The notes under the pieces are model-generated. The model was not told the origin of the DNA. It searched no databases and saw only the letters and a list, made by a program, of their open reading frames with translations. Made by a program: the position numbers and the translations under genes. From Zobellia laminariae (lineage in GTDB: Bacteria; Bacteroidota; Bacteroidia; Flavobacteriales; Flavobacteriaceae), in the NCBI RefSeq assembly GCF_009725995.1, contig NZ_RCNS01000002.1, positions 186,001 to 250,000 of the forward strand: 64,000 nt of DNA. The letters are read 5' to 3'. Below, piece after piece: positions 8,304-39,799 of the stretch; the first letter of the stretch is position 1; each line of letters opens with the position of its first letter.

Positions 8304-8306
8304 AAT

Positions 8307-9005: not shown

Positions 9006-9221
9006 AATACTTTAATCTTTTTCAACAAGTATTTACGGGATGCGTTTACCAAAGGTTTGGTTTTTCAACAATTTTTTTCGGTAAAAGATGGATACATATC
9101 TTTCACTTCTCTGGAAACCGCCTATTTATAGCATGTTAGAAGGTTTGTAAGAATCACAAGGGAAAACGACCAATAGGAAAAACTTTTAATAACTTTTAGA
9201 AGAGGCTTTTTACAAAAAGTC

Positions 9222-9229
9222 TATTTTTG
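9222..9229 (+). promoter_or_regulatory. Candidate -7 box (TATTTTTG) of trxB
   Basis: Exact TAnnTTTG match 31 bases upstream of the trxB ATG at 9261. The -33 region is not recognisable. Confidence 0.45.
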
Positions 9230-9260
9230 TTCATTAACTATTTAAAATGAGTATTTGATT

Positions 9261-10226
9261 ATGTCTGAGAAAATAGAAAGGCTTAAAACGTTGATTATAG
9301 GATCGGGACCTGCAGGGTATACCGCAGCAATATATGCAGCTCGAGCAGATTTAAAACCGGTTGTGTATACAGGGATGGAGCCCGGAGGGCAATTGACCAC
9401 TACAACTGAGGTCGATAATTTCCCAGGCTACCCAGAAGGTATTGATGGTCCAACCATGATGGTGCAATTACAGCAGCAAGCAGAGCGTTTTGGAACTGAG
9501 GTACGTATTGGAATGGCAACAGCTGTTGAGTTGAGTGATACCGTTGGTGGTATTCACAAGGTAACCATAGATGATAACAAGACTATAGAAGCGGAAACTA
9601 TTATAATTTCCACTGGTGCTTCGGCAAAATATTTGAACATCCCTAGTGAACAGCGTTTACGTGGTGGTGGTGTATCTGCATGTGCTGTTTGTGACGGATT
9701 TTTCTATAGAGGTCAAGATGTAGCTATTGTTGGTGCAGGAGATACTGCAGCAGAAGAGGCTTCTTATTTGGCAAATATCTGTAACAAGGTAACCATGTTA
9801 GTTCGTAAAGATCACATGCGTGCTTCTAAAGCTATGCAACACCGTGTTGAAAGCTTAAAGAATGTAGAGATTAGATACAATACAGAAGTAGATGAGGTTC
9901 TAGGAGAACAAGTTGTTGAAGGTCTACGTATGGTCAATAATGAAACTGGAGTAAAAGAAGATATTGCTATTACAGGTCTTTTTATAGCTATTGGTCATAA
10001 GCCAAGTACAGATATCTTTAAAGGACAGTTAGATATGGACGAAACGGGATATATCATAACTAAAGGGAAATCTACAAAAACTAACAAGCCAGGTGTTTTT
10101 GCCAGTGGTGATGCTCAAGATAGAGAATATCGTCAAGCAGTTACCGCTGCCGGTACAGGTTGTATGGCTGCACTAGATGCTGAGCGTTATTTAGCGACTG
10201 TGGAAACTCCTCAGGAAACGGTTTAA
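9261..10226 (+). CDS. trxB: Thioredoxin reductase (NADPH)
   Basis: FAD-dependent disulfide reductase that uses NADPH to reduce thioredoxin in the cytoplasm. The 321-residue protein has the N-terminal FAD motif GSGPAGYTAAIYAAR, the redox pair CAVC at Cys141 and Cys144 (spacing and region as in bacterial TrxB), the NADPH motif GAGDTAAEEA, and the C-terminal FAD motif GVFASGDAQD. The ATG at 9261 (MSEKIERL) is preferred over an in-frame TTG two codons upstream. Monocistronic, with a terminator directly after it. Confidence 0.96.
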   Translation: MSEKIERLKTLIIGSGPAGYTAAIYAARADLKPVVYTGMEPGGQLTTTTEVDNFPGYPEGIDGPTMMVQLQQQAERFGTEVRIGMATAVELSDTVGGIHKVTIDDNKTIEAETIIISTGASAKYLNIPSEQRLRGGGVSACAVCDGFFYRGQDVAIVGAGDTAAEEASYLANICNKVTMLVRKDHMRASKAMQHRVESLKNVEIRYNTEVDEVLGEQVVEGLRMVNNETGVKEDIAITGLFIAIGHKPSTDIFKGQLDMDETGYIITKGKSTKTNKPGVFASGDAQDREYRQAVTAAGTGCMAALDAERYLATVETPQETV

Positions 10227-10245
10227 AAGAACCAATATATAGAAC

Positions 10246-10276
10246 AAAAAAAAAGCTGCATTATGCAGCTTTTTTT
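10246..10276. terminator. Bidirectional terminator after trxB
   Basis: Stem AAAAAGCTGCAT/ATGCAGCTTTTT flanked by A- and T-runs, lying between the convergent trxB and the minus-strand gene ending at 10293. Confidence 0.88.
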
Positions 10277-10292
10277 ATTTGTTAGAAAATTA

Positions 10293-10739
10293 TTAATCCA
10301 AGCGTTTATAGTTTTCGGAATTAATTCTATTTCCTTCCTCATCGGTAAAAATCTGACTGAAACTATTTTTATCCAATTCCAGTTCCATATCCCATTTCAT
10401 ATCTGAGTTGGTGATTTTACGCATAGAGGCAGACATGTATTCTAGTTTTTCGGTAAGTGTGCTGTCCGTAGTTTCATAAGAACCGTAGCCAAACCATTCA
10501 ACAGAATCGTTGGGTACATAACGGGTCCACATTACTTTACCGTTATAATACATTTTAATTTGGCGGTATCCATCTGCTGCCAGTAGTGTGTCGGTAGGAA
10601 CGCCATCAGCATAATTATAATGGCTCACTAATTCCCACGTGCCTTCAATAGTAGGGTGATACGGTGTTTCAGGAGCTTCATATTTGGTGGCGGAAATAAG
10701 TAAAAATGAAATACAGATTAAAGTGATTATTTTTTTCAT
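10293..10739 (-). CDS. Secreted protein of unknown function, tandem paralogue A
   Basis: 148-residue protein with an N-terminal signal peptide (MKKIITLICISFLLISAT). The mature part starts with a lipocalin-like GTWELVSHYNY strand, then IKMYYNGKVMWTRY, EWFGYGSY and LEYMSASMRKI, a pattern of alternating strands suggesting a small beta-barrel. I do not recognise a named family with certainty; some Bacteroides lipocalin-like DUF proteins share the GTW start. It is a clear duplicate of the gene at 10814-11260. The ATG at 10739 is chosen over an in-frame TTG at 10745. Function unknown. Confidence 0.75.
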   Translation of the reverse strand: MKKIITLICISFLLISATKYEAPETPYHPTIEGTWELVSHYNYADGVPTDTLLAADGYRQIKMYYNGKVMWTRYVPNDSVEWFGYGSYETTDSTLTEKLEYMSASMRKITNSDMKWDMELELDKNSFSQIFTDEEGNRINSENYKRLD

Positions 10740-10813
10740 GGCCAAGTGTTTTAAGGTTGACGTATATTAATATATAAGACCAGCCTGTATAAACAGGCCG
10801 TAAGGAGCCGTAA

Positions 10814-11260
10814 TTAATCTATGCGGTGGTAATTTTCCGAAGCAATCCGTCCACCATCTTCATCCAATGAAATTTGGGTGAACGTATTATTGTCTAATTG
10901 TAGTTCCATACTCCATTGCATATCTTCATTAGCGATTTTACGCATGGAAGCAGACATATATTCTAATTTTTCAACTAAAGTATTTTCTGTAGCGGCATAG
11001 GAGCCATAACCAAACCATTCTACTTCTTTATTAGGTGTATAGCGCGTCCACATAACCTTTCCGTTATAGAACATTTTAATCTGGCTATACCCCTTTACAG
11101 GCGTTAAAGTGTCCGTAACGTTTTCGCCATCATAATTATAACGGCTAGTCAGTTCCCATGTTCCTTCAATTGAAGGGTGTAGTTCGTTTTCAACAGATGT
11201 AGGTCCTGTTGCAGAGATGAGTAAAAGCATTAATAAAGCTAATCCTAGTAGTTTTTTCAT
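10814..11260 (-). CDS. Secreted protein of unknown function, tandem paralogue B
   Basis: 148 residues with signal peptide (MKKLLGLALLMLLLISAT) and the same core as its neighbour: GTWELTSRYNY, IKMFYNGKVMWTRY, EWFGYGSY, LEYMSASMRKI, and a C-terminus ENYHRID against ENYKRLD. By eye well over half of the positions match, so this is a recent tandem duplication. The genes are 74 bases apart; a short hairpin GCCTGT/ACAGGC at 10783-10798 lies between them without a T-tract. Function unknown; the mature protein is probably periplasmic. Confidence 0.75.
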   Translation of the reverse strand: MKKLLGLALLMLLLISATGPTSVENELHPSIEGTWELTSRYNYDGENVTDTLTPVKGYSQIKMFYNGKVMWTRYTPNKEVEWFGYGSYAATENTLVEKLEYMSASMRKIANEDMQWSMELQLDNNTFTQISLDEDGGRIASENYHRID

Positions 11261-11524
11261 AATAGTGTTGTTTAAGTGGATAAGCGGTTTTGTACCAATA
11301 AGTTACAACAAAATTTATGAATATCGTATTTTTTGTAACAAAATTGTATGATATTATCAGTGTAGGTAAAATCCTCAATATTGGGTATTTGAAATTCAAA
11401 TCGAATAAAATCGACATATTAATAATAAGGAGAATGTATTTTGCCGATGTGTGATTTCTGCACTCAAGACCAAGGTATTTAGTCAATTATTTGCTAATTT
11501 TAGTAATTAACTAACTCCAAACAC

Positions 11525-14500
11525 ATGAAGAATATTACACTCGTAATGTTTGCTCTTTTGTGCTCGTACACATCATTTGGGCAAACAATTTCAGGAAATG
11601 TAACCGACACAAAAAATGTTCCGCTTCCCGGCGTTTCTATTGTAGTCGCAAGAACAAACAAAGGTGCTACCACAGACTTTGATGGTAATTATACCATAAC
11701 AGCTGCTGAGGGTGATGCGCTCAATTTTTCATATATAGGTATGAAAAGTAAGACCGTCACAATTGGAGCGGATCAAACTATTAATGTTGTTTTAGAAGAA
11801 GATGCACAACAGTTAAACGAGGTTGTGGTAACTGCATTAGGTATAAAGAAAGAAAAGCGTTCCGTCGGGTATGCTATTCAAGAAATTGGTTCAGAAGAAC
11901 TTAACCGCGATAATAACGGAGACGTTTTAAGTGGGATACAAGGTAAAGTGGCCGGTGTGAATATTAATTCCAGTAGTGGTGCAGCCGGAGCAGGTTCTAG
12001 TATTATAATAAGAGGTATAACCTCTTTGAACCCATCGGCAAACAACCAACCGCTATTTGTTGTAGATGGTATACCTATTAGTAACGAGGCTTCAACAGGT
12101 AATCTTTTGCCTAGTACAGGTTCTAATGCTCCTTCTTCCTCAGAGCAATTTTCTTTTACTAATAGAGGAGCGGATTTAAACCCTAACGATATTGAAAGTG
12201 TATCAATTCTTAAAGGTCCTGCTGCTACCGCATTATATGGTGTAAGAGCTGCAAACGGTGTTGTAGTTATTACCACAAAGAAAGGAAAGAATGGAGAAAC
12301 AAAATTTAACCTTAGAACTAGCATTGGTTGGCAAGAAGTAAATAAAACTCCTGATGTTCAAACCAAATGGAGAGAAGGTAGAGGAGGTGAAATAATTTCA
12401 ACTTCTAATAATAATGCTCCAGACGGTTATGACTTTGCAGACGGGAATAGTTTTGGTTTCTGGACATTAGGCCCAGAATACGGTCCAAATGATAAGAACT
12501 ATGATAATTTCAAGAACTTTTTCAATAGAGCATTTACAACGAACAATTCTTTGAACGTAAGTGGTGGTGGAGAAAACTATACTTATTTTGGTTCTGTTTC
12601 TCGTTCCGATGATGAAGGTTTAGTGCCGAACACGTATTTTGATAGAACTTCTTTAAAGCTATCAGGTTCAATTAACATTACTGATAAATTTACAGTAGAA
12701 CCTTCTCTATCCTACATCGTTTCTGATGGTAGATTACCAAATGGTGGAGATAAGTCGGTTATGAGTTCGCTATCGTATTGGTCGCCAACTATAGATATAA
12801 ACGATTATGTTTTGCCAAATGGAGATGAAAAAAACTATACAGCGGGAGTAGTGGATAACCCACGTTATTTTGCCGAAGTAAGTTATTTAGATAGTAAAGT
12901 AAATAGAATTTTAGCAAACACTAAATTCAATTATAAGTTTAATGATTGGGCTCAGGTACAATACCAATTGGGTGTAGATAATTACCATGATTCAAGACTT
13001 AGATTTGTGCCGCCAGATATTGATCCTGGTTCCGCAACCAATGGTTTTATTGTAGATGAAGGTTTAAATTACAATGAATTAACATCTAATTTATTTGTAA
13101 CACTTTCAAAGGACTTTAGTGAAGATTTATCTGGTTCCTTACTAGTAGGTAATCAAGTATCTAACACTAAAAGCAGAAGATTGACCACGAGAGCTGAAGG
13201 TCTTGACCCAGATAATATGACAGCGTTTGGTCAAGCCAATAACTTTTTTGAAGATATAGGTGGAGCAGAACGTAAAGTTGTTGGTCTTTTTGGAGACTTT
13301 AGATTAGAGTATAAGAATACTTTGTTCTTGAACGTAACTGGTAGAAACGATTGGTCATCTACTTTACCAAAAGAAAATAGAAGTTTCTTCTACCCGTCTT
13401 TTAACTTAAGTTATGTTCTTTCACAGACACTTCAAGATGCCGGTAGCTTACCAGATTTCTTAACTTTTGCTAAGTTTAGAGCATCGTATGCTGAGGTTGG
13501 AAAGGATGCATCTGCCTATGTAGGTATTTATTACGACCAACCATCTAATTTTCCGTTCGGAACTGTAGACGGTCTTTCTAGAGATAGTTCTGGTGGATCA
13601 AGTACTTTAAAACCGGAAAGAACTGCTTCGGTAGAATTTGGTGGGGAATTCAAGTTTTTCAATAATCGTTTTGGAATTGATTTCACGTATTACAAGCAGA
13701 ATAGTAAAGATCAGATTCTACCTGTTCCGGTTGCACAATCTTCAGGGTATGATACGTTTGTTCTAAATGCTGGGGAAATAGAGAATAGAGGACTTGAGGC
13801 ATTGGTTAACATTGTACCTATTAAAACAGATAATTTTAAATGGGACGTTACATTAAACTGGTCTAAAGTAGACGCAGAAGTTATTTCGTTACCAAACGGT
13901 GTAGATGAGATTATTTTTGCAGATAGTGGTTTTCCTGGAGTTATCTCTAAACTAGAAGTAGGTGGTGCACCTGGTGACCTTTTTGGTTATGTATGGGAAA
14001 AGCACGAAAATGGCAGTAGACTAATTGGCGAAGACGGTTTCCCATCTATTGTTGCTAGTAATCCTTCGGACAGGGTAAAAGTAGGTAGTGCATTACCAGA
14101 TTGGTTAGGTAGCATAAGTAGTACGCTAAAATATAAAGGGTTAGCATTATCATTTTTAATAGAGAGAAAAGAAGGTGGTGAATTGTATGATTCTGGCCAA
14201 CGAAATGGTATTAGAAATGGTGTGTTACAAATTACTGAGTTCAGAGATGCTACAACTGTTTTAGACGGTGTTTTAGCAGATGGTACTCCAAATAATATTC
14301 CCGTCTTTATAGATGAAAACTATTACAGAAATTCTGCAGTTTACAATCGTGCTTCAGAAATCTTAGTTCAAGATGCATCTTGGTGGCGATTAAGAAACGT
14401 TACTTTGTCTTATGACCTTCCTACCCAACTCATAAAGAACACCCCATTTACGACTATGGGTTTCAGTTTTACAGGAACCAACCTATGGTTAGATACGCCA

Positions 14501-14620
14501 TTTAGAGGGTATGATCCAGAAGGTAGCCAGTTTAGTGCAGGTACAAACGCCTACGGTTTTACCGGTCTAAACATACCTAACACAAAGTCGTTCATATTTG
14601 GTCTAAACCTTAATTTCTAG
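11525..14620 (+). CDS. SusC/RagA-family TonB-dependent outer-membrane receptor
   Basis: Outer-membrane transporter of 1031 residues, full length for the family. Order of parts: signal peptide to about residue 20 (SYTSFGQ), carboxypeptidase-like domain (PLPGVSIVV, TTDFDGNYTI, FSYIGM), TonB-dependent plug (LNEVVVTALG, LSGIQGKVAGVN, SILKGPAATALYG), then a 22-strand-type barrel ending NTKSFIFGLNLNF. The susD partner begins four bases after the stop, a standard SusCD operon. No glycoside hydrolase, sulfatase, peptidase or regulator is in the operon, so the substrate is unknown; peptides are as possible as glycans. Confidence 0.96.
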   Translation: MKNITLVMFALLCSYTSFGQTISGNVTDTKNVPLPGVSIVVARTNKGATTDFDGNYTITAAEGDALNFSYIGMKSKTVTIGADQTINVVLEEDAQQLNEVVVTALGIKKEKRSVGYAIQEIGSEELNRDNNGDVLSGIQGKVAGVNINSSSGAAGAGSSIIIRGITSLNPSANNQPLFVVDGIPISNEASTGNLLPSTGSNAPSSSEQFSFTNRGADLNPNDIESVSILKGPAATALYGVRAANGVVVITTKKGKNGETKFNLRTSIGWQEVNKTPDVQTKWREGRGGEIISTSNNNAPDGYDFADGNSFGFWTLGPEYGPNDKNYDNFKNFFNRAFTTNNSLNVSGGGENYTYFGSVSRSDDEGLVPNTYFDRTSLKLSGSINITDKFTVEPSLSYIVSDGRLPNGGDKSVMSSLSYWSPTIDINDYVLPNGDEKNYTAGVVDNPRYFAEVSYLDSKVNRILANTKFNYKFNDWAQVQYQLGVDNYHDSRLRFVPPDIDPGSATNGFIVDEGLNYNELTSNLFVTLSKDFSEDLSGSLLVGNQVSNTKSRRLTTRAEGLDPDNMTAFGQANNFFEDIGGAERKVVGLFGDFRLEYKNTLFLNVTGRNDWSSTLPKENRSFFYPSFNLSYVLSQTLQDAGSLPDFLTFAKFRASYAEVGKDASAYVGIYYDQPSNFPFGTVDGLSRDSSGGSSTLKPERTASVEFGGEFKFFNNRFGIDFTYYKQNSKDQILPVPVAQSSGYDTFVLNAGEIENRGLEALVNIVPIKTDNFKWDVTLNWSKVDAEVISLPNGVDEIIFADSGFPGVISKLEVGGAPGDLFGYVWEKHENGSRLIGEDGFPSIVASNPSDRVKVGSALPDWLGSISSTLKYKGLALSFLIERKEGGELYDSGQRNGIRNGVLQITEFRDATTVLDGVLADGTPNNIPVFIDENYYRNSAVYNRASEILVQDASWWRLRNVTLSYDLPTQLIKNTPFTTMGFSFTGTNLWLDTPFRGYDPEGSQFSAGTNAYGFTGLNIPNTKSFIFGLNLNF

Positions 14621-14624
14621 AAAG

Positions 14625-16133
14625 ATGAAAGTTTTAAAATATATTTTTTCAATTACGGTAGCGACTAGCCTTTTGGTAAGTTGCGATGATTATTTGGGCG
14701 ATAATGTCGACCCTAATAAAGAGCTTCCTGAAAATGTAACAGAAGCAGATCTTTTGCCAACGGCAATTTATAATTCCTCTTCCGCACATTATAGTATTGC
14801 TTTAAGCATCTGTCAATACTCACAACAATTGGCTTCTTATTTTGAGCCTGGTGCAGATACTCAGGAAGAAGTTCAGATAACTGGGGGGTGGAGTAATATC
14901 TATTTACAAGCCTTAGCAGATTTAGATCAAGTAGTTACTATTGCAGAGAGTAATGAAGCCGGTCATTATATAGGAGTGGCAAAAATTTTACAAGCATTTA
15001 ATTTGGGACTTGCTACAGATCAATGGGGAGATGTTCCTTTTTCAACTGCCCTAGAAGGCGAAGCAAATTTTAGACCATCATATGACTCACAAGAGAGTGT
15101 TTATGGGCAAATAAATGCTTTATTGAATGAGGGGATTACCTTTTTGGAAGGCGCAGATAGTTCAGGATTCTCCATTGGTGAAGACGATTTAGTCTATGGA
15201 GGTGATACTACAAAATGGATTAAAGCAGCTTATTTTCTAAAAGCAAAGTATGCGTTACACCTTTCGGAGGTTGACCAAAACGTAGCTATTGAAGGTGTAT
15301 TGAGTAGTGTGTCCAATAGCTTTTCAAGTAATGAAGATGATTTTCAATTGGTGTACAACGAAAGAAATTTCAATCCATGGAATTCAGGAGTAGTACTTCC
15401 TAATAATACGGGTAACTTTTCTGTGTTATTATCTGATCAATTGGTAAGCCTTATGAATGGCACATCTATTCCGTTTGCTTCTATAGAATTGGATCCACGT
15501 TTAACTTTGATAACTACAATAGGTGAAGACGATACTGAATATCTTGGAGGTCTAAATGGTGGCGCCGGTAGTTATGAATTAGCAGCAACTGAAGATGATG
15601 ATGATATAAGCGCTAATACAGATTTAGGAGCTGATAATTTTTATTCTTCCCAGAGTGCTCCTATAATCATGGGCAGTTATTCTGAGTTAAAGTTTATGGA
15701 GGCCGAAGCATTATTTCTCCAAAATGGAGGAGATGCCACATCGGTTGGTACTTCAGCAGATGCTTACAATGCATATCTAGAAGGAATAGAAGCAAACATG
15801 GATAAGCTTGGTGTTGCTCCAGTAGATAAAGCGACTTACTTAAGTGATGCTTCAATTGCCGTGGGAGCAGATAATTTAACGATGGCCTTAATTATGAGAG
15901 AGAAGTTTATTGCCACTTTTCTAAACCCGGAATCGTTTGTAGATTTAAGAAGATATGATTTTGATCCCAATGTATTTGTAGGATTGGAACTACCTGTAGG
16001 TCATAATGAAGTTTTAAATGGACAATGGGTGAGGAGAGCTCAGTACCCAACTTCTGAACAAACCAGAAACGGAGAACAGGTAGAAGCGGTAACCAAAGGA
16101 ATTGGTGACCCAGTCTGGTGGGATAGAGACTAA
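14625..16133 (+). CDS. SusD/RagB-family outer-membrane lipoprotein
   Basis: Substrate-binding lid of the SusC channel on the cell surface. The 502-residue protein has a lipoprotein signal with Cys20 (SLLVSCDDYLG), a DPN motif soon after it, and features of the SusD-like-2 subgroup, including the terminal YPTSEQTRNGEQVEAV region where the family often has NP.E..N. TPR-like helices include GVAKILQAFNLGLATDQWGDVPFS. It starts four bases after susC and ends at a terminator that overlaps the opposing gene. Confidence 0.93.
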   Translation: MKVLKYIFSITVATSLLVSCDDYLGDNVDPNKELPENVTEADLLPTAIYNSSSAHYSIALSICQYSQQLASYFEPGADTQEEVQITGGWSNIYLQALADLDQVVTIAESNEAGHYIGVAKILQAFNLGLATDQWGDVPFSTALEGEANFRPSYDSQESVYGQINALLNEGITFLEGADSSGFSIGEDDLVYGGDTTKWIKAAYFLKAKYALHLSEVDQNVAIEGVLSSVSNSFSSNEDDFQLVYNERNFNPWNSGVVLPNNTGNFSVLLSDQLVSLMNGTSIPFASIELDPRLTLITTIGEDDTEYLGGLNGGAGSYELAATEDDDDISANTDLGADNFYSSQSAPIIMGSYSELKFMEAEALFLQNGGDATSVGTSADAYNAYLEGIEANMDKLGVAPVDKATYLSDASIAVGADNLTMALIMREKFIATFLNPESFVDLRRYDFDPNVFVGLELPVGHNEVLNGQWVRRAQYPTSEQTRNGEQVEAVTKGIGDPVWWDRD

Positions 16134-16151
16134 TCCTCTGGATGTTAAGTT

Positions 16152-17195
16152 CTAAGGAAGGATATTGATGCAATGTAAAACGTGCTCAATATCCTTTTTT
16201 TTATGCGCCGCACTCAGTACAATTCTACTCATAAGCGGAGAACTTTTATCAGGATAGGGAAAGCTGGTTACAATAATACGGTTTGCTTCAAGATACTCGG
16301 TTAACTGCTCATCAGAAAACGTATAGGCAGGATGGCCTTTCATAAAATGAAATGCTTTTCGTTTTTTAAGATTGCCAAAAAACAAATCCATATTACGCTG
16401 CAGTCGTTTTCTTTTAAGTTCATAAATGGCATCTGCTTCTACAAGCGTTGCCATGGCTGCTGGTATTGCTGGGCTAGAACCTCCAAAAAATGAAGTTTCA
16501 GTTAGAAAATGAATACGCTCTTTTGTACCAAAAACAGCACCCGCCTGAATACCGAAACCCTTGCCCAATGATCCACATACAATAAGTTCTTTTATTTTCA
16601 GCTTTGCTAAAATAGAATAAACGCCTCCACCATTTTCACCAACAATACCCAATCCGTGAGAATCATCTACAACCAAAATAATATCCTCTAGCGGGAGAAT
16701 TTTCAAAGTTTCAAAATCAGGATAATTGCAGCCGGAGAAATCTATACTATCTAAAAAAACAACAGGTGTAGATTTATTGGATTCTAAATGCTCGCGAACG
16801 GCAATGTTTAATGTAGCAAAAGTAGTATATGATTTTATTTTAGATTGATAGAGCGCAGAATGTGTATTGGGTGCATAAAAAAACTGATGTTCTTTGGTGT
16901 TGAGTACTTGTGCCAAAAACTGACCAGTCAAGTACCCAGATGATAAAGTGACACATGCCTCACTGCCCACGATTTTGGCTAAATACGTTTCAGCTTCATC
17001 AAAGACGGACAGGCGAATATTAGATTTTCTTGAAGCTCCATAATTGGTACCGTATTTCTTAATATTACTAATGAATAGTTTCTGAAAATCGCTATCGGTT
17101 TGGAGACCTAAATACGAAGTACCTCCAAAATAAAGATGAGAAACTCCGTTTAGAGTAATCTTTCTGCCTGGGAATGTATCAATATAATGGTTCAT
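16152..17195 (-). CDS. BioF-like PLP-dependent enzyme (alpha-oxoamine synthase / class I-II aminotransferase fold)
   Basis: 347-residue cytoplasmic PLP enzyme resembling 8-amino-7-oxononanoate synthase and relatives, somewhat shorter than the usual 380-400. Visible are YLGLQTD near the start (family YLGL), the cofactor motif DDSHGLGIVG (Asp177, His180), and GSLGKGFGIQAG with Lys212 as the probable Schiff-base residue. Its start overlaps the stop codon of the upstream dipeptide epimerase by one base (TAATG), so the two are translationally coupled and probably work in one pathway. No biotin genes are nearby, so naming it bioF would be wrong. Its last codons form one arm of the terminator of the opposing susD. 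Confidence 0.85.
   Translation of the reverse strand: MNHYIDTFPGRKITLNGVSHLYFGGTSYLGLQTDSDFQKLFISNIKKYGTNYGASRKSNIRLSVFDEAETYLAKIVGSEACVTLSSGYLTGQFLAQVLNTKEHQFFYAPNTHSALYQSKIKSYTTFATLNIAVREHLESNKSTPVVFLDSIDFSGCNYPDFETLKILPLEDIILVVDDSHGLGIVGENGGGVYSILAKLKIKELIVCGSLGKGFGIQAGAVFGTKERIHFLTETSFFGGSSPAIPAAMATLVEADAIYELKRKRLQRNMDLFFGNLKKRKAFHFMKGHPAYTFSDEQLTEYLEANRIIVTSFPYPDKSSPLMSRIVLSAAHKKKDIEHVLHCINILP
16158..16202 (+). terminator. Terminator of the SusCD operon, embedded in the opposing coding sequence
   Basis: AAGGATATTGA (16158-16168) pairs perfectly with TCAATATCCTT (16186-16196), followed by a run of Ts to 16202. It lies 24 bases after the susD stop and entirely inside the 3' end of the minus-strand BioF-like gene, where it encodes the final KDIEHVLHCINI segment. 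Confidence 0.8.
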
Positions 17196-18211
17196 TATCT
17201 TAAACTAACTCCTGTTCCATTCAGTTCTGAAAAAACGAGTTTTCCGTCTGGTAAAATTTTTACGCCATCGGCGATATCACCTTTAAGTAATAACGGGCCG
17301 TCCATATCAACATAGTCCAGTTGAGGAACTAATTGGGCTATGGCAGAAATACCTACGGTAGATTCTGTCATACAACCGATCATTACTTTAATTCCCATTT
17401 CTTTTGCCTCGGCTATCATGCGTATGGCAGGAGTAATACCTCCACATTTGGTCAATTTTATATTAATACCGCTGTAATGAAGCGCACATTTTTGAACATC
17501 ACTTTCTACAATGCAACTCTCATCTGCAATGACAGGTAGCACACTGTGGTGCATAACTTTTTCCATGCCTTCCCAATCATCGGCTCTTAAAGGTTGCTCA
17601 AGAAATTCTACTCCTAAGTCTTTTAATAATGGGGCGTTTGCAATGGTTTCACTTGCAGACCATGCGCAGTTGGCATCTATCCTAAAAATAGCATCGGTAT
17701 GTTCGCGTAAAGCTCTAACAATAGCAACATCATCATCCGTACCTAATTTTATTTTGTAAATAGGCCAAGGCATTTCTTTCATTTTCTCCACCATTTTTTC
17801 AACGGGGGCAATACCTATAGTGTAATTTGTTATTGGGTAGGAGGTGTTTCCTGTTCCCCAAATATCATAAAGTGGCTTTCCTTGCAGTTTACCAAAAAGG
17901 TCCCAAGCGGCAAGATCTAATGCACAGATAGCAAAGTTTGATAGTTTTTTACTAGTCAAAAAAGCATGAAAATTTTCAGGATGATCTATGTGAAAGGCTT
18001 CTATTTCTTTTCTGATGGTTTCAATTTCTGCCATCATACTTTCTACGGTAATATTGTAGTAAGGGTTAGATGTGGTTTCTCCATAACCAGTCTTTCCCTC
18101 TAAAGAAAGACTAACGATTAAAGTGTTTTGAAAATCGTGAGATTCACGGGAGATACTAAAGGTATGTTTTAAGGCTAAAACGTATTTTTTAAATCTAACT
18201 GCATGTTCCAA
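17195..18211 (-). CDS. Dipeptide epimerase (enolase superfamily, L-Ala-D/L-Glu epimerase type)
   Basis: Enolase-superfamily enzyme of 338 residues that epimerises dipeptides, classically L-Ala-D-Glu from murein turnover. The barrel motifs are in order: KIK (Lys153, Lys155), metal ligands Asp179 in RIDANCAW, Glu205 in FLEQPL and Asp230 in VIADES, and the second base Lys255 in IKLTKCGG. GCMTES and MDGPLLL match the dipeptide epimerase branch. It is the first gene of a two-gene operon with the BioF-like enzyme, coupled by TAATG. Exact dipeptide specificity cannot be read from sequence. A nearby peptide-uptake role for the SusCD pair is conceivable. Confidence 0.9.
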   Translation of the reverse strand: MEHAVRFKKYVLALKHTFSISRESHDFQNTLIVSLSLEGKTGYGETTSNPYYNITVESMMAEIETIRKEIEAFHIDHPENFHAFLTSKKLSNFAICALDLAAWDLFGKLQGKPLYDIWGTGNTSYPITNYTIGIAPVEKMVEKMKEMPWPIYKIKLGTDDDVAIVRALREHTDAIFRIDANCAWSASETIANAPLLKDLGVEFLEQPLRADDWEGMEKVMHHSVLPVIADESCIVESDVQKCALHYSGINIKLTKCGGITPAIRMIAEAKEMGIKVMIGCMTESTVGISAIAQLVPQLDYVDMDGPLLLKGDIADGVKILPDGKLVFSELNGTGVSLR

Positions 18212-18309
18212 TTGTTTCCACTAATATAAAAAGAGAAAAAGGGTTTGCACTCTTCTCTGAGCTTTTTTTCGGAAAGCAGAAAAGATTAACGTTTCTACCG
18301 ACTTAAACC

Positions 18310-18340
18310 AAAAACAAGCTGCCGAAAATTCGACAGCTTG
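18310..18340 (-). terminator. Terminator of the DUF2807 gene
   Basis: CAAGCTG/CAGCTTG outer stem with an inner CGA/TCG pair, followed on the minus strand by five Ts; 27 bases past the DUF2807 stop. Confidence 0.75.
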
Positions 18341-18366
18341 CATTTAGGATTGTTCGTTTTTTGATT

Positions 18367-19098
18367 TTAATATTTGTGTACGCCACCTGAAACAGATTTT
18401 TTAGTTTTTACACTAGCATTACCGGTATAGGCAACGTTACCACCACTACTGGCATCGGCAACAAGGGTTTCGGAAACTTGAATTTTCATATTTCCACCAC
18501 TACTGGCATCTGCAGTGCAGGTTTTGGTTAAAAGTGTTTTGGCATTGATATTACCACCGCTACTTACATCTACATCTGCACGATTGGCTTGGCCGGATAT
18601 ATTTAGATTTGCGCCGCTGCTGGCATCTATTTCTAGGACATCTGCAACTACTTCAACAGCTATTTGAGCACCGCTACTACCATCTATTTCAAGATCATCA
18701 CTTTCAATAGTATTTTCAACATGCAGTTGTGATCCGCTTGATGCACTTAAGTTGGAAACCACAGGAAGTGAAACGTAAACTTTCTTTGTGGCTCTACCAA
18801 TATTCTGTTTGGCGTGAATACGTAGTTTTCCGTTCTTAATATCTGTAGCAATGAGGTCAATTATGTTTTCATCTGCCTCTACTTTAATATTAAATTCACT
18901 GGCTTGAGTAACATACACTGTTAGACCTTCTGATGCAGATACTTTTGTAAACTCATCTGTTATTGTTCTATCGTCCGTTACTACGGTTCCGTTACCTTTT
19001 TCACCGGAGCCAAAGTCGCCAATGTTGACGTCAAAACCACAGGAAGATAAAAACAGTGCTACTAGAAATGCAATTGCAATACGAATTAAAGTTGTCAT
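18367..19098 (-). CDS. DUF2807 (GIN-domain) lipoprotein with SSG repeats
   Basis: 243-residue lipoprotein with signal LVALFLSSCG (lipidated Cys at 20). The remainder is the DUF2807 'head GIN' domain, an all-beta fold of stacked strands. Six units of about 20 residues carry the motif [DAG]xSSG[AGS] (SASSGSQL, DGSSGAQI, DASSGANL, DVSSGGNI, DASSGGNM, DASSGGNV), consistent with one solenoid turn each. The ATG at 19098 gives a proper signal peptide; an in-frame ATG at 19173 would not. It lies last in a PadR-PspC-DUF2807 cluster typical of Bacteroidota. Molecular function is not established. Confidence 0.88.
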   Translation of the reverse strand: MTTLIRIAIAFLVALFLSSCGFDVNIGDFGSGEKGNGTVVTDDRTITDEFTKVSASEGLTVYVTQASEFNIKVEADENIIDLIATDIKNGKLRIHAKQNIGRATKKVYVSLPVVSNLSASSGSQLHVENTIESDDLEIDGSSGAQIAVEVVADVLEIDASSGANLNISGQANRADVDVSSGGNINAKTLLTKTCTADASSGGNMKIQVSETLVADASSGGNVAYTGNASVKTKKSVSGGVHKY

Positions 19099-19216
19099 GA
19101 TAGTTGTTTTAAGATTGATGTAAAATTGAACTATTGGTTGCGTCTTTACCAGATTTTCAGACTCAAACGTCATATTTTGATACTGAATTGATTACACTGG
19201 CTAAACTTTAATAAAA

Positions 19217-21064
19217 TCAGGTTTTATAATTGGTGTCATTTGGTTCTGAACGGTTATCATCAATATCTATATCAATGCCATTTTCGTCTATATTTATCCT
19301 GTTCTGACCATCAGTATCTTCTTCATTAGAATTTATATGAACGCCGTCTTTACCTATTTTCATTTTTATTGATTCACCGTCTTCATGAATGTCAATATCA
19401 ATTCCGTTTTCATCTATTCTAATTTTATTCCTCCCGTTGTTATCGTCATCATTATCATCCTCTTCAATAATCTCAGGGCAATCTTGGCATTTTAATTCGC
19501 CATCAGCACCCATTTTCCATACTTCGTCTTTAACTTCGCAGCCATCTAGGTCTCTATCATTTTTGGCATGGAACCTCCAACAGTTAAAGCCACTATCTTT
19601 ACTATATTTTAAAACAGCACCTGCAGGAATAAATAGGTTAACTCTTACCTCTTGGTTCATGATTTTATTCTCACGAGAGGTGGTCAAGAAATCTTCCAGC
19701 AATAATGTGTTGCCTTCAATTGTGTACTCATAGTTAATTTTCTCGGCCAATTCTTCGGCTTTCTCAAAAGACGAACCATCAGATTCTTTAACGATCTCTA
19801 TTTTGGCAATCGAGTCTCGTGAGCGCTCAATATAAAAGCTAACATCGTCTAGAACCATTACCTCTTCACCAGCTTCATTACGGGTAATGGTAAGTCCGTC
19901 TAATTCAACTTTTCTTTTATTTCGGAACCTGGTATCATATGCAACTACTCTAATTTCTAGGGTGTCCTTTACATCTCTAAAATATAGGTCTTCAGTAACT
20001 TGAGCAGTGTCTGAATATGCACGCGCTGCAGCTTGTTTTATTCCAAAGACAATCAGCATAATAATTGATATCAACCAAAGACCCAATAACGAGAACTTGG
20101 CAATGTTACCAATAGACTTTAAGTTGTTCACCAGTATTTTTAATCCTAAATAGAGAAGGAAGAAAAATGGAATACCTATGGCAAAAAAACCTAGTATGGA
20201 TACCAACCAAATGGGCATGTTACTTGCATCTACTAGATTATACATATTAAGACCAGGTATCTGAACCATATCTGAAATACCTACGGTTATCATGCCTATA
20301 AAAAGGCCTATAATAGTAGAAGCACCAATAATGATTAAGAGTACGCCAATGAACTTTCCAAAGACTTTAAAGAAGAACATGATAATATCTCCTAGGGTAT
20401 CAAAAAAAGACTTACCTCCGCTTTTTACTTTATTACCTACATCTTCATAATCAACGCTTTTAATTTTTTGGGCAACATCATCAAAGCCTTCTTTGACCTT
20501 ACGTTCTATATTGCTGATGTTGATGTCCTCCCCCCGCATATCTAATTTTTGCGAAGTAGTAACAGCCTCGGGAATCAATAACCATAGTAGGCCATATATC
20601 AAAATAAAACCACCCGAAGAACCAATGGTTAAAAGCACCCATATTAAGCGTACCCAAAGTGGGTCTATATTAAAGTAATGCGCTAAACCGGAGGAAACAC
20701 CCGCTACATATTTCTGCTCCGTATCTCGGTACAGTTTCTTAGATTTTCTTGGTTCAGAATTTGTTCTACCTGTATTAGGCTCATCCTCAAAAATATCTTC
20801 ATCCACCATATAATCTTCTGGCTGCCCCATGATAGCTATAACTTCGTCTACCTGTTTTTGGGTAATAACCTGTCGCTCGTTATCAAGCTTTTCATGAAAC
20901 AGTTCTGCTATTCGTGCTTCAATATCCGCCAGTATTTCATCACTGCCCGGTGTGTTGGCAAAAGAGCGCTTCACGGACTCCAGATAGCGCTGCATTTTGT
21001 TATATGCATCTTCATCCATATGGAAGAGCATATTTGCTAGATTAATGTTTATAGTTTTGTTCAT
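19217..21064 (-). CDS. PspC-domain membrane protein with acidic C-terminal repeats
   Basis: Inner-membrane protein of 615 residues. The N-terminal 95 residues are charged and helical (a segment frequently paired with PspC in this phylum), then a PspC domain at about 111-168 (LYRDTEQKYVAGVSSGLAHY, LWVRLIWVLLT, LLWLLIPEA), further hydrophobic segments between about 230 and 350, and a large periplasmic region. The C-terminus is highly acidic with a repeated DENGIDIDI element (two good copies, one variant KDGVHIN), plausibly a beta-strand repeat or divalent cation binder. PspC senses envelope stress in proteobacteria; here the role is inferred. It starts 62 bases after PadR and is likely in one operon with PadR and DUF2807. 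Confidence 0.88.
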   Translation of the reverse strand: MNKTININLANMLFHMDEDAYNKMQRYLESVKRSFANTPGSDEILADIEARIAELFHEKLDNERQVITQKQVDEVIAIMGQPEDYMVDEDIFEDEPNTGRTNSEPRKSKKLYRDTEQKYVAGVSSGLAHYFNIDPLWVRLIWVLLTIGSSGGFILIYGLLWLLIPEAVTTSQKLDMRGEDINISNIERKVKEGFDDVAQKIKSVDYEDVGNKVKSGGKSFFDTLGDIIMFFFKVFGKFIGVLLIIIGASTIIGLFIGMITVGISDMVQIPGLNMYNLVDASNMPIWLVSILGFFAIGIPFFFLLYLGLKILVNNLKSIGNIAKFSLLGLWLISIIMLIVFGIKQAAARAYSDTAQVTEDLYFRDVKDTLEIRVVAYDTRFRNKRKVELDGLTITRNEAGEEVMVLDDVSFYIERSRDSIAKIEIVKESDGSSFEKAEELAEKINYEYTIEGNTLLLEDFLTTSRENKIMNQEVRVNLFIPAGAVLKYSKDSGFNCWRFHAKNDRDLDGCEVKDEVWKMGADGELKCQDCPEIIEEDDNDDDNNGRNKIRIDENGIDIDIHEDGESIKMKIGKDGVHINSNEEDTDGQNRINIDENGIDIDIDDNRSEPNDTNYKT

Positions 21065-35696: not shown

Positions 35697-36149
35697 GTAT
35701 GTTTAATAAGCCGCAAAGATACGGCGAATGTTTGGATAAGCGTTAAATGTGGTTTATACTGCCATAGACTTCAGTTGTACGTTTAATGGAGCAATTCATA
35801 CAAAGTACCTTTTTTCAAGAGCATTACATTATTACATTTACTTAAAGAAAATGTAGAGTTAAAACAGCCTATAGTTCTTATTTCCCTTTGTCCTAAGGTT
35901 TTGACCATTTTTGAATAATGGATTCTCTTTAGTGAATTGGTTTTAAACTTTTGCGTTTCCCTCCCCTGTAAAATTAGTACGTGTTGTTTAGTATCGGATA
36001 AAGTATTAGCCCCTTAAATAACCATCATATTTCCCCCACTGTAAGGCCTCATGTCACAATATCTAATTGATTGTTGTTCTTGATGTTTAGCAATTTACTG
36101 TTCCCTCAATTATTGTTCATCTATATATTCATGTTTTAAAAAACAAGTT
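35697..36149. other. Intergenic region upstream of the M64 peptidase gene
   Basis: About 450 bases, AT-rich at both ends, with no credible coding frame, no strong hairpin and no exact TAnnTTTG box. It must hold the promoters of the divergently oriented helicase and peptidase genes, but I cannot place them. Confidence 0.4.
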
Positions 36150-38201
36150 ATGGTAACACAAATTCTTAAATCAGGTCCAACAGGGCTAAAGAAAAACATT
36201 GCCGTAATCGGGGACGGTTTTGCGTCTGCCGACCAAACGGCATACAACCAAAAGGTTAAAGAGCTTTTAATCGATGGCGTGTTCGGCCACGATTATTTTT
36301 ACGAAGATATGCAGGCCTTCAATATTTTCAGGGTCAATTTGATTTCGACCGAATCGGGGGTCAGTCAGCGAAGGTATGATGAAAAGGGTACACCTGCCGA
36401 CAAAAGCGATGATACTATCATCAGTACCAATATTAAAGATACGGCATTGGGTTACATCTATAGTGGTTCTTGGGCGCATTGCTGGTTGGAAGGAGGCGCA
36501 AACACCAATACCTTTGTGCAGAACGCCTTAAATACATGGGTTCCAGACTATGACCTCGTTCTCATAATCTTGAACGAACCAGGCTTCGGGGGATGCGGCG
36601 GTGGCGGGTTTCAAATTGTAACTTTAGGATCTAGCTGGGCCGTTATGGCTCATGAGTTCGGGCATGGTGCCGGCGGTCTTGCCGATGAGTATTGTAAAAA
36701 TAAAAAATATACTGGTGGAGAACCTGGGCGAGTTAATATTACGGCCAATACAAACCGGGCAACCTTAAAATGGAAGAAGTTCGTTAAGCCCAGTACGCCC
36801 ATTCCCACTGGTTCTGGAAAATGTGCAACTCATAATCAAGGCACCAAACCTGCCGGTTGGAGTAGCAACCAAGATGTAGGTCTTTTTGAAGGAGGAAGCA
36901 CCTTTAACGAAGATATTTACAGACCTACCGAAAACTGTAGAATGAAAGGCAATACGCCTCCATTTTGTCCAGTATGTTATACGGAGTTCAAGACTAAAAT
37001 GCATCCGTTTACAGGGCGTAATTTCAAAAACTGTTATACGGGTGACTTTAATGGTGATGGCAAGGATGATCTACTTGTACACAATGATAATTCGATTATG
37101 ATCTACCGCTCCAATGGATCCCAATTAGATGTGGTTTTTAGTACAGTTGAAAGAGTGCCTGGCTCATGGCAATTTAAAAAGGGAGACCAGTTTTTCATCG
37201 GTGATTTCAATGGTGATGGTAAAGATGAGGTAGTTGTATACAATAGTACAAATTGGAACAAGGAATATTTTGGCTATCTAGTTGATGATGGAAACAATGG
37301 TTTGAAGTTAAGAGCCAGATACAATGATAAAATGCCGGGATGGCAGTTTCAGAAAAATGACAAATTTTATGTAGCAGATTTCAATGGCGATGGTAAAAAA
37401 GACCTTTACGTTTTTAACGGGACGGATTGGAGTGTTCCTTATTTTGCGATGTTACGCTCAACAGGTAACGGATTTCAGGTAGTAAGACGTTATGAGAAAA
37501 ACCTACCAGGTTGGAATATGGCCAAGAACGACCAATTCTTTATCGGTGACTTTTCTGGTGATGGCAAGGATGATCTCTGGGTGTTCAATGGTCATAATTG
37601 GTCTATTCCTTATTTTGGAATGCTTAGCGCAAACAGCACTTCTTTGACCTTCAAAAAGAGATACGATAAAGTATTGGCAGGTTGGCAAATGACCAAAAAT
37701 GATAAATACTATGTGGCCGATTTTAACGGAGATGGTAAAAAAGACCTATATGTTTTCAACGGCCATAATTGGAATGTAGCCTATCTGGCGATGCTAAAAT
37801 CTACAGGCGCGGCCTTAAGCATGGTAAAACGATACGATGGTAATGCTCCGGGTTGGCAAATGCGCAAGAATGACCTTCATTATATAGGTGATGTGAACGG
37901 AGATGGTAAAGAAGACCTGTTTGTATATAACCATGCAGATTGGGGCCGAGAGTACTTGGGCACGATGCGGTCTAATGGAAGTGCATTGGCCTGCAATTGG
38001 AAGCATGATTGGGTCGGTGAGTGGAATCTAGGAAGTGCAGATAGGTTCATACCCTGTAATTTTGAAGGTGCCGCCGGAAAACGTAACTTAATAGTGCACA
38101 ATACAAATTGGTTGGGAATGATTAGGGCAACGCCGAATTTAAGTCTTCGAAAACTTTACTATAAGTGGATACATAACTATAAGCACGGTAGAAACTGGTA
38201 A
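36150..38201 (+). CDS. M64-family metallopeptidase with C-terminal FG-GAP/VCBS-like repeats, no signal peptide
   Basis: 683-residue two-part protein. Residues 1-290 match the IgA-peptidase M64 family: NIAVIGDGFASADQTAYNQK, NIFRVNLISTESGV, and the zinc motif AHEFGHGAGGLADEY with His168, Glu169, His172 and Asp179, followed by a Cys cluster (Cys263, Cys273, Cys276). From 295 to 660 there are seven repeats of about 57 residues, six of them with the Ca-binding pattern D-x-[NS]-G-D-G-K (Asp299, 352, 410, 467, 524, 581); the last is degenerate. FG-GAP repeats usually form a propeller for protein or glycan binding. Unlike typical M64 proteins it begins directly with MVTQILKSG, with no Sec signal, lipobox or type IX C-terminal domain, and no upstream in-frame start was evident. 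Base composition looks GC-richer than flanking genes (32 of 60 bases G/C at 36181-36240). Confidence 0.85.
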   Translation: MVTQILKSGPTGLKKNIAVIGDGFASADQTAYNQKVKELLIDGVFGHDYFYEDMQAFNIFRVNLISTESGVSQRRYDEKGTPADKSDDTIISTNIKDTALGYIYSGSWAHCWLEGGANTNTFVQNALNTWVPDYDLVLIILNEPGFGGCGGGGFQIVTLGSSWAVMAHEFGHGAGGLADEYCKNKKYTGGEPGRVNITANTNRATLKWKKFVKPSTPIPTGSGKCATHNQGTKPAGWSSNQDVGLFEGGSTFNEDIYRPTENCRMKGNTPPFCPVCYTEFKTKMHPFTGRNFKNCYTGDFNGDGKDDLLVHNDNSIMIYRSNGSQLDVVFSTVERVPGSWQFKKGDQFFIGDFNGDGKDEVVVYNSTNWNKEYFGYLVDDGNNGLKLRARYNDKMPGWQFQKNDKFYVADFNGDGKKDLYVFNGTDWSVPYFAMLRSTGNGFQVVRRYEKNLPGWNMAKNDQFFIGDFSGDGKDDLWVFNGHNWSIPYFGMLSANSTSLTFKKRYDKVLAGWQMTKNDKYYVADFNGDGKKDLYVFNGHNWNVAYLAMLKSTGAALSMVKRYDGNAPGWQMRKNDLHYIGDVNGDGKEDLFVYNHADWGREYLGTMRSNGSALACNWKHDWVGEWNLGSADRFIPCNFEGAAGKRNLIVHNTNWLGMIRATPNLSLRKLYYKWIHNYKHGRNW

Positions 38202-38223
38202 TTAAATTTTTAAACCAAAAAAG

Positions 38224-39015
38224 ATGAAAAACAATATATTCAATAAGCCATTAATGGCAGAGAATCCCGAAAGTGTATTTGTCGAAAACGAAAAGCTGAA
38301 AACTATGGAAAATGCCCCACGGGCAAGAAGAATCAATAGGCAGATTTTGAAAATGGACGATGAAAAAGACACGCAGAAAGAATCGGCTTTTAAGATAAGT
38401 CCTCCAAAAGGGAAAGCAAATAATTTTATGGCTGCTTTCGAACCGGAAATATCTTTTAAAGACAAAAAGCAAACTGATTTACCAGATCAAGAAGAGCTGA
38501 AAACAGTCCAAAAAGCCACAGCTTCAGATTATCATATTCGAATGAGATTCAAAGTGAAAGATGGTGAGATTTCGGTTGCCGATATCATTAAAGTAAAGGG
38601 CGATTTTGTCAACGAGAACCAATTAAATGCCCATGGCGGATTCGTATATGAGGTTTCAAAACGAAACAAACAATTACAGACCGGGGTGATTCCTGATGCT
38701 GGAGTACGGAGAGGATTCCCGCACCCCAACCCTAAAAACACTGAAGAACAGGGTCATTCCGTAGCCGTTGCAGATGAGTTCGATTTTAATATAAAATTAC
38801 CCGTAAAGCAGGTCACCGCTGCTTCGCTAAAGTCTTTTAAGGTTGATTTGTACCGGGCAAAAGCAGGAATTGATAATGAATTTGTGGCATCTAACATATC
38901 ACTTAAAGAACAATTTGGCGAGAAGTTGCGCAAAGTGGCATCTTTTAAGACAATAAAACTATCAGAAATGCCAAGTGCCACGCGAAAACGCTTTGAAAGT
39001 GCTTTGAAAAGGTAA
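38224..39015 (+). CDS. Unrecognised soluble protein, companion 1 of the M64 peptidase
   Basis: 263-residue protein starting 22 bases after the peptidase, so almost certainly co-transcribed. I do not recognise a family. The first 100 residues are polar, low complexity and probably disordered; residues 103-263 form a domain rich in alternating strands (YHIRMRFKV, GGFVYEVSKRNK, TGVIPDAG, FDFNIKLPV, FKVDLYRA, LRKVASFKTIKL). The same domain recurs in the next gene. No signal peptide, no membrane segment. Its placement suggests an inhibitor, chaperone or partner of the peptidase, which is inference only. It is followed by a terminator at 39031-39058. Confidence 0.7.
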   Translation: MKNNIFNKPLMAENPESVFVENEKLKTMENAPRARRINRQILKMDDEKDTQKESAFKISPPKGKANNFMAAFEPEISFKDKKQTDLPDQEELKTVQKATASDYHIRMRFKVKDGEISVADIIKVKGDFVNENQLNAHGGFVYEVSKRNKQLQTGVIPDAGVRRGFPHPNPKNTEEQGHSVAVADEFDFNIKLPVKQVTAASLKSFKVDLYRAKAGIDNEFVASNISLKEQFGEKLRKVASFKTIKLSEMPSATRKRFESALKR

Positions 39016-39030
39016 AATAAACTCTAAATT

Positions 39031-39058
39031 AGAGCAATTATCGGTTGCTCTTTTTTTT
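39031..39058 (+). terminator. Terminator between the two companion genes
   Basis: AGAGCAA/TTGCTCT stem with a seven-base loop and a run of eight Ts, 16 bases after the first companion gene. Either it ends the peptidase operon or acts as a partial terminator before the second companion. Confidence 0.75.
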
Positions 39059-39080
39059 GAGTATTTTTCAAAATAATACA

Positions 39081-39758
39081 ATGAGAGACTGGTTTTTTAT
39101 TGGCTTGTGGCTTTTTTGTTCCATCTATATGGTACTTTTAATAACATACTACCAAGTAGAAAACTGGTCTTTGATTGGAGAAATTGAAAATTTGATTGAA
39201 CGAAGGAATGTGAAATATTCACTTTGCCCAAGTTTGAGGGAAAGAAGCCAAATGAAAAAAAACAAAGCTATGCAAGGCCAGTACTATCTAAGATTGGACT
39301 TAAATATAGAAAACGAAATCATTACTATTGCACATGCAAAAAAAGTAGTCGGGCCAGTGCTACAATTAGCTGAAATACATTTAGCAGCTGGAATTTTGTA
39401 TGAAGTTCGAAAGAATGGAGGAAGACTAGATCTTGGGGCGATTCCGTATGATGCTTTATTAACTAACTTTGATAACATAATCAAAGATGGGGCTCAAGCT
39501 TCATGCTTGGCTGAAATCGGGCCATACAATATTCATGTAAGAATACCTTTAGAACGTTTTGACCTAAATGATTTTGAGAAAATAGAAATAACCATCTATG
39601 ATTTGAAGAAGGTTTTTGCAAATATTTCGGTTTCTGAAGATTCTTTAGCTTTGCAGTTTACAGGAAAAATCGAAAAAGTCGCTGTTCTCAAATGTATTGA
39701 TGTAGCAAGTTTGTCTATAGCTTTAAAACGAGAACTACATGAGATTTTTCAAGAGTAA
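39081..39758 (+). CDS. Unrecognised membrane-anchored protein, companion 2, sharing a domain with companion 1
   Basis: 225 residues from the ATG at 39081 (MRDWFFIGLW); an upstream in-frame TTG at 39045 falls within the terminator and is rejected. Residues 4-24 form one membrane segment. Residues 68-225 align by eye with the C-terminal domain of the preceding gene: YYLRLDLNI with YHIRMRFKV, GILYEVRKNG with GGFVYEVSKR, LGAIPYDA with TGVIPDAG, YNIHVRIPL with FDFNIKLPV, and IEKVAVLKCI with LRKVASFKTI. Family and function unknown. The DNA is AT-richer than the two genes before it. It may anchor the system to the membrane; that is inference. Confidence 0.7.
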   Translation: MRDWFFIGLWLFCSIYMVLLITYYQVENWSLIGEIENLIERRNVKYSLCPSLRERSQMKKNKAMQGQYYLRLDLNIENEIITIAHAKKVVGPVLQLAEIHLAAGILYEVRKNGGRLDLGAIPYDALLTNFDNIIKDGAQASCLAEIGPYNIHVRIPLERFDLNDFEKIEITIYDLKKVFANISVSEDSLALQFTGKIEKVAVLKCIDVASLSIALKRELHEIFQE

Positions 39759-39799
39759 AAGTATAAACTTTACTTCGTGCATATTAAATAAAATTTTTA

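What the first reader, a model, noticed from the sequence alone, without database searches (positions are those of the whole stretch)
36150..39758. M64 metallopeptidase with FG-GAP-like propeller, lacking export signal, plus two unknown partners: candidate undescribed system
The peptidase has a full zinc motif (AHEFGHG...ADEY) joined to seven 57-residue repeats, six with Ca-binding DxNGDG loops. M64 proteins and FG-GAP proteins are normally secreted, yet no Sec, lipoprotein or type IX signal is present. It is followed at 22 bases by a protein with a disordered N-terminus and a novel-looking beta-rich domain, and then by a membrane-anchored protein with the same domain. The first gene is GC-richer than its surroundings. 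This looks like a self-contained cassette, perhaps a toxin or effector with accessory/immunity or a specially exported peptidase; that function is inference.
Basis: partly seen in the sequence, partly recalled or inferred. Interest (0 to 1): 0.78.

Follow-up and report, generated by a model that had tools for sequence, protein, structure and literature searches.

The report
Leaderless protease-lectin cassette shared with archaea
At a chromosomal spot where none of nine examined relatives has it, this bacterium carries a small gene cassette for an enzyme of a protein-cutting family joined to a predicted sugar-binding propeller, without an export signal and followed by a partner gene that also follows the same enzyme in two archaeal genomes; it is likely a defence or attack protein stored inside the cell, much as some mushrooms store toxic protease-lectins.

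Summary
Window 36150-38201 encodes an M64 (igalysin) zinc peptidase starting directly at its catalytic domain, fused to a seven-repeat Ca-loop propeller. No upstream start exists, and 0 of 120 listed family members has a hydrophobic N-terminus (21 of 21 ordinary M64 comparators do); all 120 end IHNY..GRNW. Gene 2 is a conserved partner: two archaeal loci carry the same pair 6 bases apart (enzyme 70% and 54% identical, partner 28%). A terminator-like hairpin follows genes 1+2; gene 3 (partner domain on a membrane anchor) lies beyond. The 4.06 kb cassette is missing from 9 of 9 same-genus genomes (flanks contiguous in 8), and the enzyme groups with an Anaerolineae protein rather than other named Bacteroidota: likely horizontal acquisition. 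The propeller's nearest solved relatives are glycan lectins (UmbA4, PVL). The partner's predicted beta-domain most resembles the N-terminal domain of M64 peptidases; profile tests do not confirm this. Best reading: a prokaryotic protease-chimerolectin kept in the cytoplasm, acting on others after release. Rival: contractile-particle cargo; one archaeal host has an eCIS, but 0 of 9 relatives of the window matched an archaeal sheath. Not found in print.

The parts
35743..39799 (.). 4.06 kb insert between a DEAD-box helicase gene and an FAD-dependent dehydrogenase-like gene (names by eye); replaces about 14 bp found in the nearest relatives
   Evidence: blastn of flanks against 9 same-genus genomes: 9-16 bp between the flanks in 8 of 9; in G002 988 bp with an unrelated 253-aa ORF
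36150..38201 (+). gene 1: leaderless M64 (igalysin) metallopeptidase fused to a propeller, 683 aa
   Evidence: Pfam, PDB sequence matches 4df9/3p1v and 9oee, 119 other full-length members listed
36651..36686 (+). zinc motif HEFGHGAGGLAD (residues 168-179), fits HExxHxxxGxxD of igalysins
   Evidence: motif definition from passages of PMC12237041; HEFGH in 120 of 120 listed members
37029..38162 (+). predicted seven-blade beta-propeller (residues 294-671), pLDDT mostly 74-96 per block of ten
   Evidence: AlphaFold model; Foldseek best matches UmbA4 and fungal lectins; repeats
38163..38198 (+). C-terminal tail ending IHNYKHGRNW, pattern invariant in the listed family, not folded in the model
   Evidence: 120 of 120 listed members end IHNY..GRNW; pLDDT under 50
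38224..39015 (+). gene 2: partner, 263 aa; about 100 low-confidence residues with spaced conserved motifs, then beta-domain 101-263
   Evidence: model; homologues in archaea; same order in L001 and L070
39031..39051 (+). intrinsic-terminator-like hairpin followed by a T run, after genes 1+2
   Evidence: 4 such sites found in the region, 3.9 expected by chance; this one starts 16 bases after the stop codon
39081..39758 (+). gene 3: partner domain behind one hydrophobic segment (residues 4-22), 225 aa
   Evidence: BLASTP to gene 2 and to the archaeal partners; hydropathy KD19 2.14

Best explanation
The cassette encodes a leaderless M64-family metallopeptidase joined to a predicted lectin-like beta-propeller plus a conserved partner protein, and it is likely a prokaryotic 'chimerolectin' that is stored in the cytoplasm and, once released by lysis or ingestion, would bind glycans on another organism and cut its surface proteins. 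Shown: domain order, zinc motif, absence of a hydrophobic N-terminus through the listed family, invariant C-terminal tail, the partner gene directly downstream in a flavobacterium and two archaea, and absence of the cassette from nine relatives. Predicted: propeller fold and partner fold. Inferred: sugar binding (from the nearest lectins), calcium-dependent folding outside the cell, activity on surface proteins. The partner would dock on the peptidase through its beta-domain, which resembles the N-terminal beta-sandwich fused in cis to some M64 peptidases, and hold it inactive or stable in the producer; its disordered N-terminus with spaced motifs would reach the cleft. Gene 3, the same domain on a membrane anchor, would protect or retain in this host.
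Confidence: 0.42

Rival explanations
1. The enzyme is cargo of a contractile injection particle (eCIS), with the partner's disordered N-terminus as loading tag or adaptor.
For: Archaeal genome G1312 holds the cassette and, on another contig, an eCIS-type cluster (sheath, gp19 tube, CIS_tube just under its cut-off, Pvc16_N, AAA). In G1299 an M64 gene without propeller lies on the same strand about 1.2 kb from a tail-sheath gene. Leaderless proteins suit such a route.
Against: No eCIS gene among the 66 ORFs of 100 aa or more in the window (judged by eye) nor seen on the 20 kb contig of the G1312 cassette (ORF lists by eye, Pfam for part); a partial archaeal sheath as query found nothing in 9 of 9 same-genus genomes nor in G150. 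About 780 bases without an ORF of 60 aa separate sheath and small gene in G1299.
Confidence: 0.2
2. A cytoplasmic maintenance or stress protease whose propeller recruits intracellular substrates.
For: No hydrophobic N-terminus in 120 of 120 listed members; invariant cysteines in 27 of 27 aligned, and in the IgAse structures cysteines hold zinc and no disulfides were seen (passages).
Against: Patchy distribution: 0 of 149 relatives full length, 0 of 395 in each of two overlapping draws from the phylum and class, likely transfer; propeller nearest to surface-glycan lectins; Ca loops.
Confidence: 0.2
3. The partner is a specific inhibitor (antitoxin-like) and the peptidase harms the producer or its kin when unpaired; gene 3 is a membrane copy of the inhibitor.
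For: Tight adjacency and faster divergence of the partner (28% against 70% identity for the enzyme); a second copy of the partner domain only.
Against: No known defence model hits (PADLOC none for genes 1-3); the beta-domain resembles an M64 N-terminal domain, for which no inhibitor role was seen here.
Confidence: 0.13

Closest known systems
M64 / igalysin metallopeptidases (IgAse of Thomasclavelia ramosa; BF3526, PDB 4df9/9qdi; BACOVA_00663, 3p1v)
   Same: Catalytic domain, HExxHxxxGxxD zinc motif, conserved cysteines.
   Different: IgAse has a signal peptide, as the 21 comparators here seem to; 4df9/3p1v have an N-terminal beta-sandwich in cis. Here neither, but a C-terminal propeller and a separate partner gene.
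UmbA4 lectin of Streptomyces umbrella particles (PDB 9oee)
   Same: Closest solved propeller by sequence and by fold; a protease-like domain in front of a propeller lectin.
   Different: UmbA4 is secreted, its front domain is trypsin-like followed by a bulb lectin, and it works in a particle with UmbB and UmbC; none of these is here.
PVL / PAL / AAL2 fungal seven-blade lectins
   Same: Seven blades of about 56 residues and a conserved Trp in the inter-blade segment.
   Different: Lectins without a peptidase; the pocket His is not matched here.
Marasmius oreades agglutinin (MOA), protease chimerolectin
   Same: Lectin plus protease in one protein, cytoplasmic, counted as a defence protein.
   Different: Unrelated protease fold (papain-like), fungal, no partner mentioned in the passages seen. 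An analogy, not kinship.
eCIS-associated toxins (PMC8213781)
   Same: One includes a VCBS part (passages); an eCIS-type cluster is present in one archaeal host.
   Different: Not encoded in an eCIS locus.

Membership tests
Peptidase M64 (igalysin) | Pfam PF09471 above cut-off | tested here: met
   100.1 bits, cut-off 26
Peptidase M64 (igalysin) | HExxHxxxGxxD zinc motif and Met-turn | tested here: met
   residues 168-179 and CRM at 263-265 (the Met-turn by sequence only)
Peptidase M64 (igalysin) | proteolytic activity | not testable with these tools
   no assay
PVL/UmbA4-type propeller lectin | about seven blades of 56-57 residues with Ca loops | tested here: met
   (predicted fold)
PVL/UmbA4-type propeller lectin | glycan pocket residues (AAL2 Asn104, Trp112, His117) | tested here: inconclusive
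   Trp340/398/455/512/569/625 invariant in 27 of 27, Asp/Asn near, His not matched; by sequence only
M64_N domain (PF16217), for the partner | Pfam match | tested here: not met
   0 of 34 partner members at E 1
M64_N domain (PF16217), for the partner | same beta-sandwich fold | tested here: inconclusive
Umbrella toxin UmbA | N-terminal trypsin-like domain | tested here: not met
   front domain is M64; definition
eCIS cargo | encoded in or beside an eCIS locus | tested here: not met
   none in the window by eye; own genome not held
Type IX secretion substrate | Sec signal peptide (definition recalled) | tested here: not met
Protease chimerolectin (MOA-like in working) | cytoplasmic synthesis, lectin and protease activity, harm to feeders | not tested
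   only the architecture and lack of a signal are shown

The most novel reading that the evidence does not exclude
A widespread prokaryotic 'poison-pill' system: a leaderless metalloprotease-lectin with an invariant C-terminal tail and a detached N-terminal domain that works as a separate chaperone-inhibitor, traded between Bacteroidota, Chloroflexota, Cyanobacteria and Nitrososphaeria, which arms cells against grazers or competitors when they burst or through contractile particles.
Probability: 0.3. Interest if true: 0.82.

Novelty: new variant of a known kind. Interest (0 to 1): 0.6.

Why it matters
If right, bacteria and archaea share a protein weapon built like mushroom protease-lectins, made without a secretion signal, and the M64 family gains a branch in which the N-terminal domain has become a separate protein. 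It gives a defined question: what do these leaderless lectins bind, and how do they leave the cell.

Tried and rejected
Upstream signal peptide: none. Plasmid or viral home: gene 1 not in 72,556 plasmid records at E 1e-30, L001's partner not at E 1e-3; viral contigs no relative; phages only two distant M64 matches. Defence system: PADLOC none for genes 1-3. PHROGs: gene 1's repeats match one phage family of unknown function, phrog_10385, E 1.2e-12. Gene 3 in 149 relatives: 32 genomes with weak matches, best E 0.003, none convincing. Partner as M64_N by sequence: profile-profile negative. Small genes just upstream of archaeal M64 genes (L070, L075, L076) are related to each other (35-62%) but not clearly to the partner (hhalign E 0.013, probability 3%). 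The two archaeal M64 genes without propeller (L075, L076) come without the partner: one search found one match in G1312, at the propeller gene, and none in G1299. Full-length relatives in Bacteroidota genomes: 0 of 149, 0 of 395, 0 of 395 (draws overlap; named Bacteroidota members do exist, so the draws miss some). Phylum of L001: 1 of 300, itself. Insertion mechanism: no exact terminal inverted repeat over 9 bases within 300 bases of the ends, no mobile gene seen in the insert. Tree label count gave one change for each group, because it ignores unlabelled rows, so it tests nothing; the branch that groups the window with Anaerolineae, Microcoleus, Longimicrobiales and Casimicrobiaceae apart from Spirosoma, Paraflavitalea and Hymenobacter has 98/97 support.

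Samples: A2 holds 27 sequences (window, L001, 25 of the other 119 listed members); the tree 48 of 122; A4 34 and A6 32 rows; one search used 38 of 42 partner sequences, and one of its six M64_N rows (L016) was cut to 21 residues by my pattern. One search scored only the 7,997 candidates sharing most words and listed 120 of 2,801 hits.

Papers: PMC13274773 section 12 and passages; PMC12237041, PMC8213781, PMC4483166, PMC13324453, PMC6238071 passages; the others in search listings only. Print searches for such a fusion: (open-licence library only); 'peptidase M64' with 'FG-GAP' gave 0 papers.

Full report
Observation. Gene 1 has Peptidase_M64 and FG-GAP domains, the zinc motif HEFGHGAGGLAD at residues 168-179 and seven repeats, six with calcium-type loops. 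It begins at the catalytic domain: the frame upstream closes after 22 codons with no usual start. The gene is 42.2% GC against 36.4% for the rest of the window.

The missing signal belongs to the family. A database search gave 2,801 hits, of which the best 120 were listed, the window's own protein among them; all 120 cover 96-100% of the query at 68% identity or more. In 0 of these 120 does a 12-residue window near the start (first 39 residues) exceed a hydropathy of 1.48; the 21 ordinary M64 proteins taken from other genomes all reach 1.83-3.02. This is hydropathy, not SignalP. A subgroup (26 of 120) has about 90 extra N-terminal residues, without a hydrophobic run. All 120 keep HEFGH and all 120 end IHNY..GRNW. 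The tail is outside the propeller in the model (pLDDT under 50), and in four of 112 members measured 54-95 residues separate it from the propeller's WFGMIR strand, against 11-14 in the other 108: I read it as an independent short motif, function unknown.

The partner is real. Gene 2 alone finds only itself among 5.8 billion proteins, but the archaeal contig L001, found with gene 1, carries a 70% identical enzyme followed 6 bases later by a 258-aa protein that is 28% identical to gene 2 over its full length. A profile of three then found 40 proteins, gene 3 of the window among them; the three that bear a taxon name are Thaumarchaeota or Nitrososphaeraceae. A second archaeal locus, L070, has a 632-aa enzyme with six repeats by eye (54% identical) and a 246-aa partner, again 6 bases apart. 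In a draw of 201 genomes from that archaeal order the partner is in 2 and the full-length enzyme in 2, the same ones; one of the two was the starting genome, and a third genome (G1299) has only the peptidase part. Four partner hits share the exact longest-contig length with an enzyme hit besides the window's own; jittered lengths give 0.26 on average and 4 or more in 2 of 20,000 runs. Gene 3 shares the domain but sits behind a terminator-like hairpin and was not found in the two archaeal genomes.

Acquisition. Nine same-genus genomes were compared. In 8 of 9 the flanking genes lie 9-16 bp apart and the 4.06 kb is absent; in the ninth (G002) 988 bp with an unrelated 253-aa ORF lie there. No full-length relative occurs in 149 relatives, these nine included. 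The window enzyme groups with P0003 (unnamed) and an Anaerolineae protein (five rows, 100/95), apart from Spirosoma, Paraflavitalea and Hymenobacter (98/97; 48 of 122 sequences). Horizontal gain is the simplest reading; repeated loss would be the alternative.

Mechanism. The ordinary M64 proteins seen here look exported, and some carry that N-terminal domain in cis. Here export signal and domain are both absent, a lectin-like propeller is added, and a separate protein with a similar predicted fold is encoded next door. I commit to a cytoplasm-stored protease-lectin that acts on others after release, by analogy with mushroom defence lectins, which are cytoplasmic, and with MOA, which joins lectin and protease. 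Steps not shown: sugar binding, proteolysis, complex formation, release.

Contractile particles. Two archaeal genomes with M64 genes also hold tail-sheath genes; in G1312 the sheath stands in an eCIS-type cluster, and in G1299 an M64 gene with a PLAT-like tail (and an in-frame stop) lies about 1.2 kb from a sheath gene. With that partial sheath as query nothing was found in nine relatives of the window or in G150. The route is possible in archaea and unsupported for the window.

Print. 'Peptidase M64' with 'FG-GAP' gave 0 papers and 'IgA peptidase M64' one on oomycetes; the 'chimerolectin' papers listed (10 of 26) are on fungi, plants, reviews or papain-like enzymes. Subscription papers and preprints were not searched.

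Noticed in passing
L076 (G1299:C173) 242-3837: An archaeal M64 gene without propeller (with an in-frame stop and a PLAT-like tail) lies on the same strand as a contractile-tail sheath gene, with a small gene between them.
   Followed up: partly
L086 (G1312:C93) 1537-19999: eCIS-type cluster (sheath, gp19, T4_baseplate, CIS_tube just under its cut-off, Pvc16_N, AAA with winged helix, baseplate OB) in an archaeal genome that also holds the cassette.
   Followed up: partly
L070 7525-7809, L075 662-1096, L076 1543-1914: Small genes of 94-144 aa directly upstream of archaeal M64 genes are related to each other (35-62%) and match no Pfam family: a second possible M64 companion.
   Followed up: partly
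L001 5839-6318 and L075 M64 residues 292-396: The PLAT-like domain (Pfam hit just under its cut-off) near the L001 cassette is 36% identical to the C-terminal part of another archaeal M64: a binding module that may swap with the propeller.
   Followed up: partly
L070 8322-11917 and 402-1862: A kinase-LanC protein, an unassigned 396-aa protein beside it and a patatin-like phospholipase (hits to PADLOC phospholipase effectors over its first 60 residues) surround the archaeal cassette.
   Followed up: no
L065 (G002), 988 bp between the flanking genes: The relative G002 has an unrelated 253-aa ORF at the same chromosomal spot, so the spot may be a favoured insertion site.
   Followed up: no
window 10293-10745 and 10814-11260: Two adjacent, clearly similar small secreted-looking proteins on the minus strand: a tandem duplication (by eye).
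   Followed up: no
window 6491-7195 and 8307-9005: Two similar LytTR-type response regulators flank a universal-stress-protein-like gene (names by eye).
   Followed up: no
P0069, P0094 and 24 more of the 120 listed members: Subgroup with an extra N-terminal segment of about 90 residues in front of the M64 domain.
   Followed up: no
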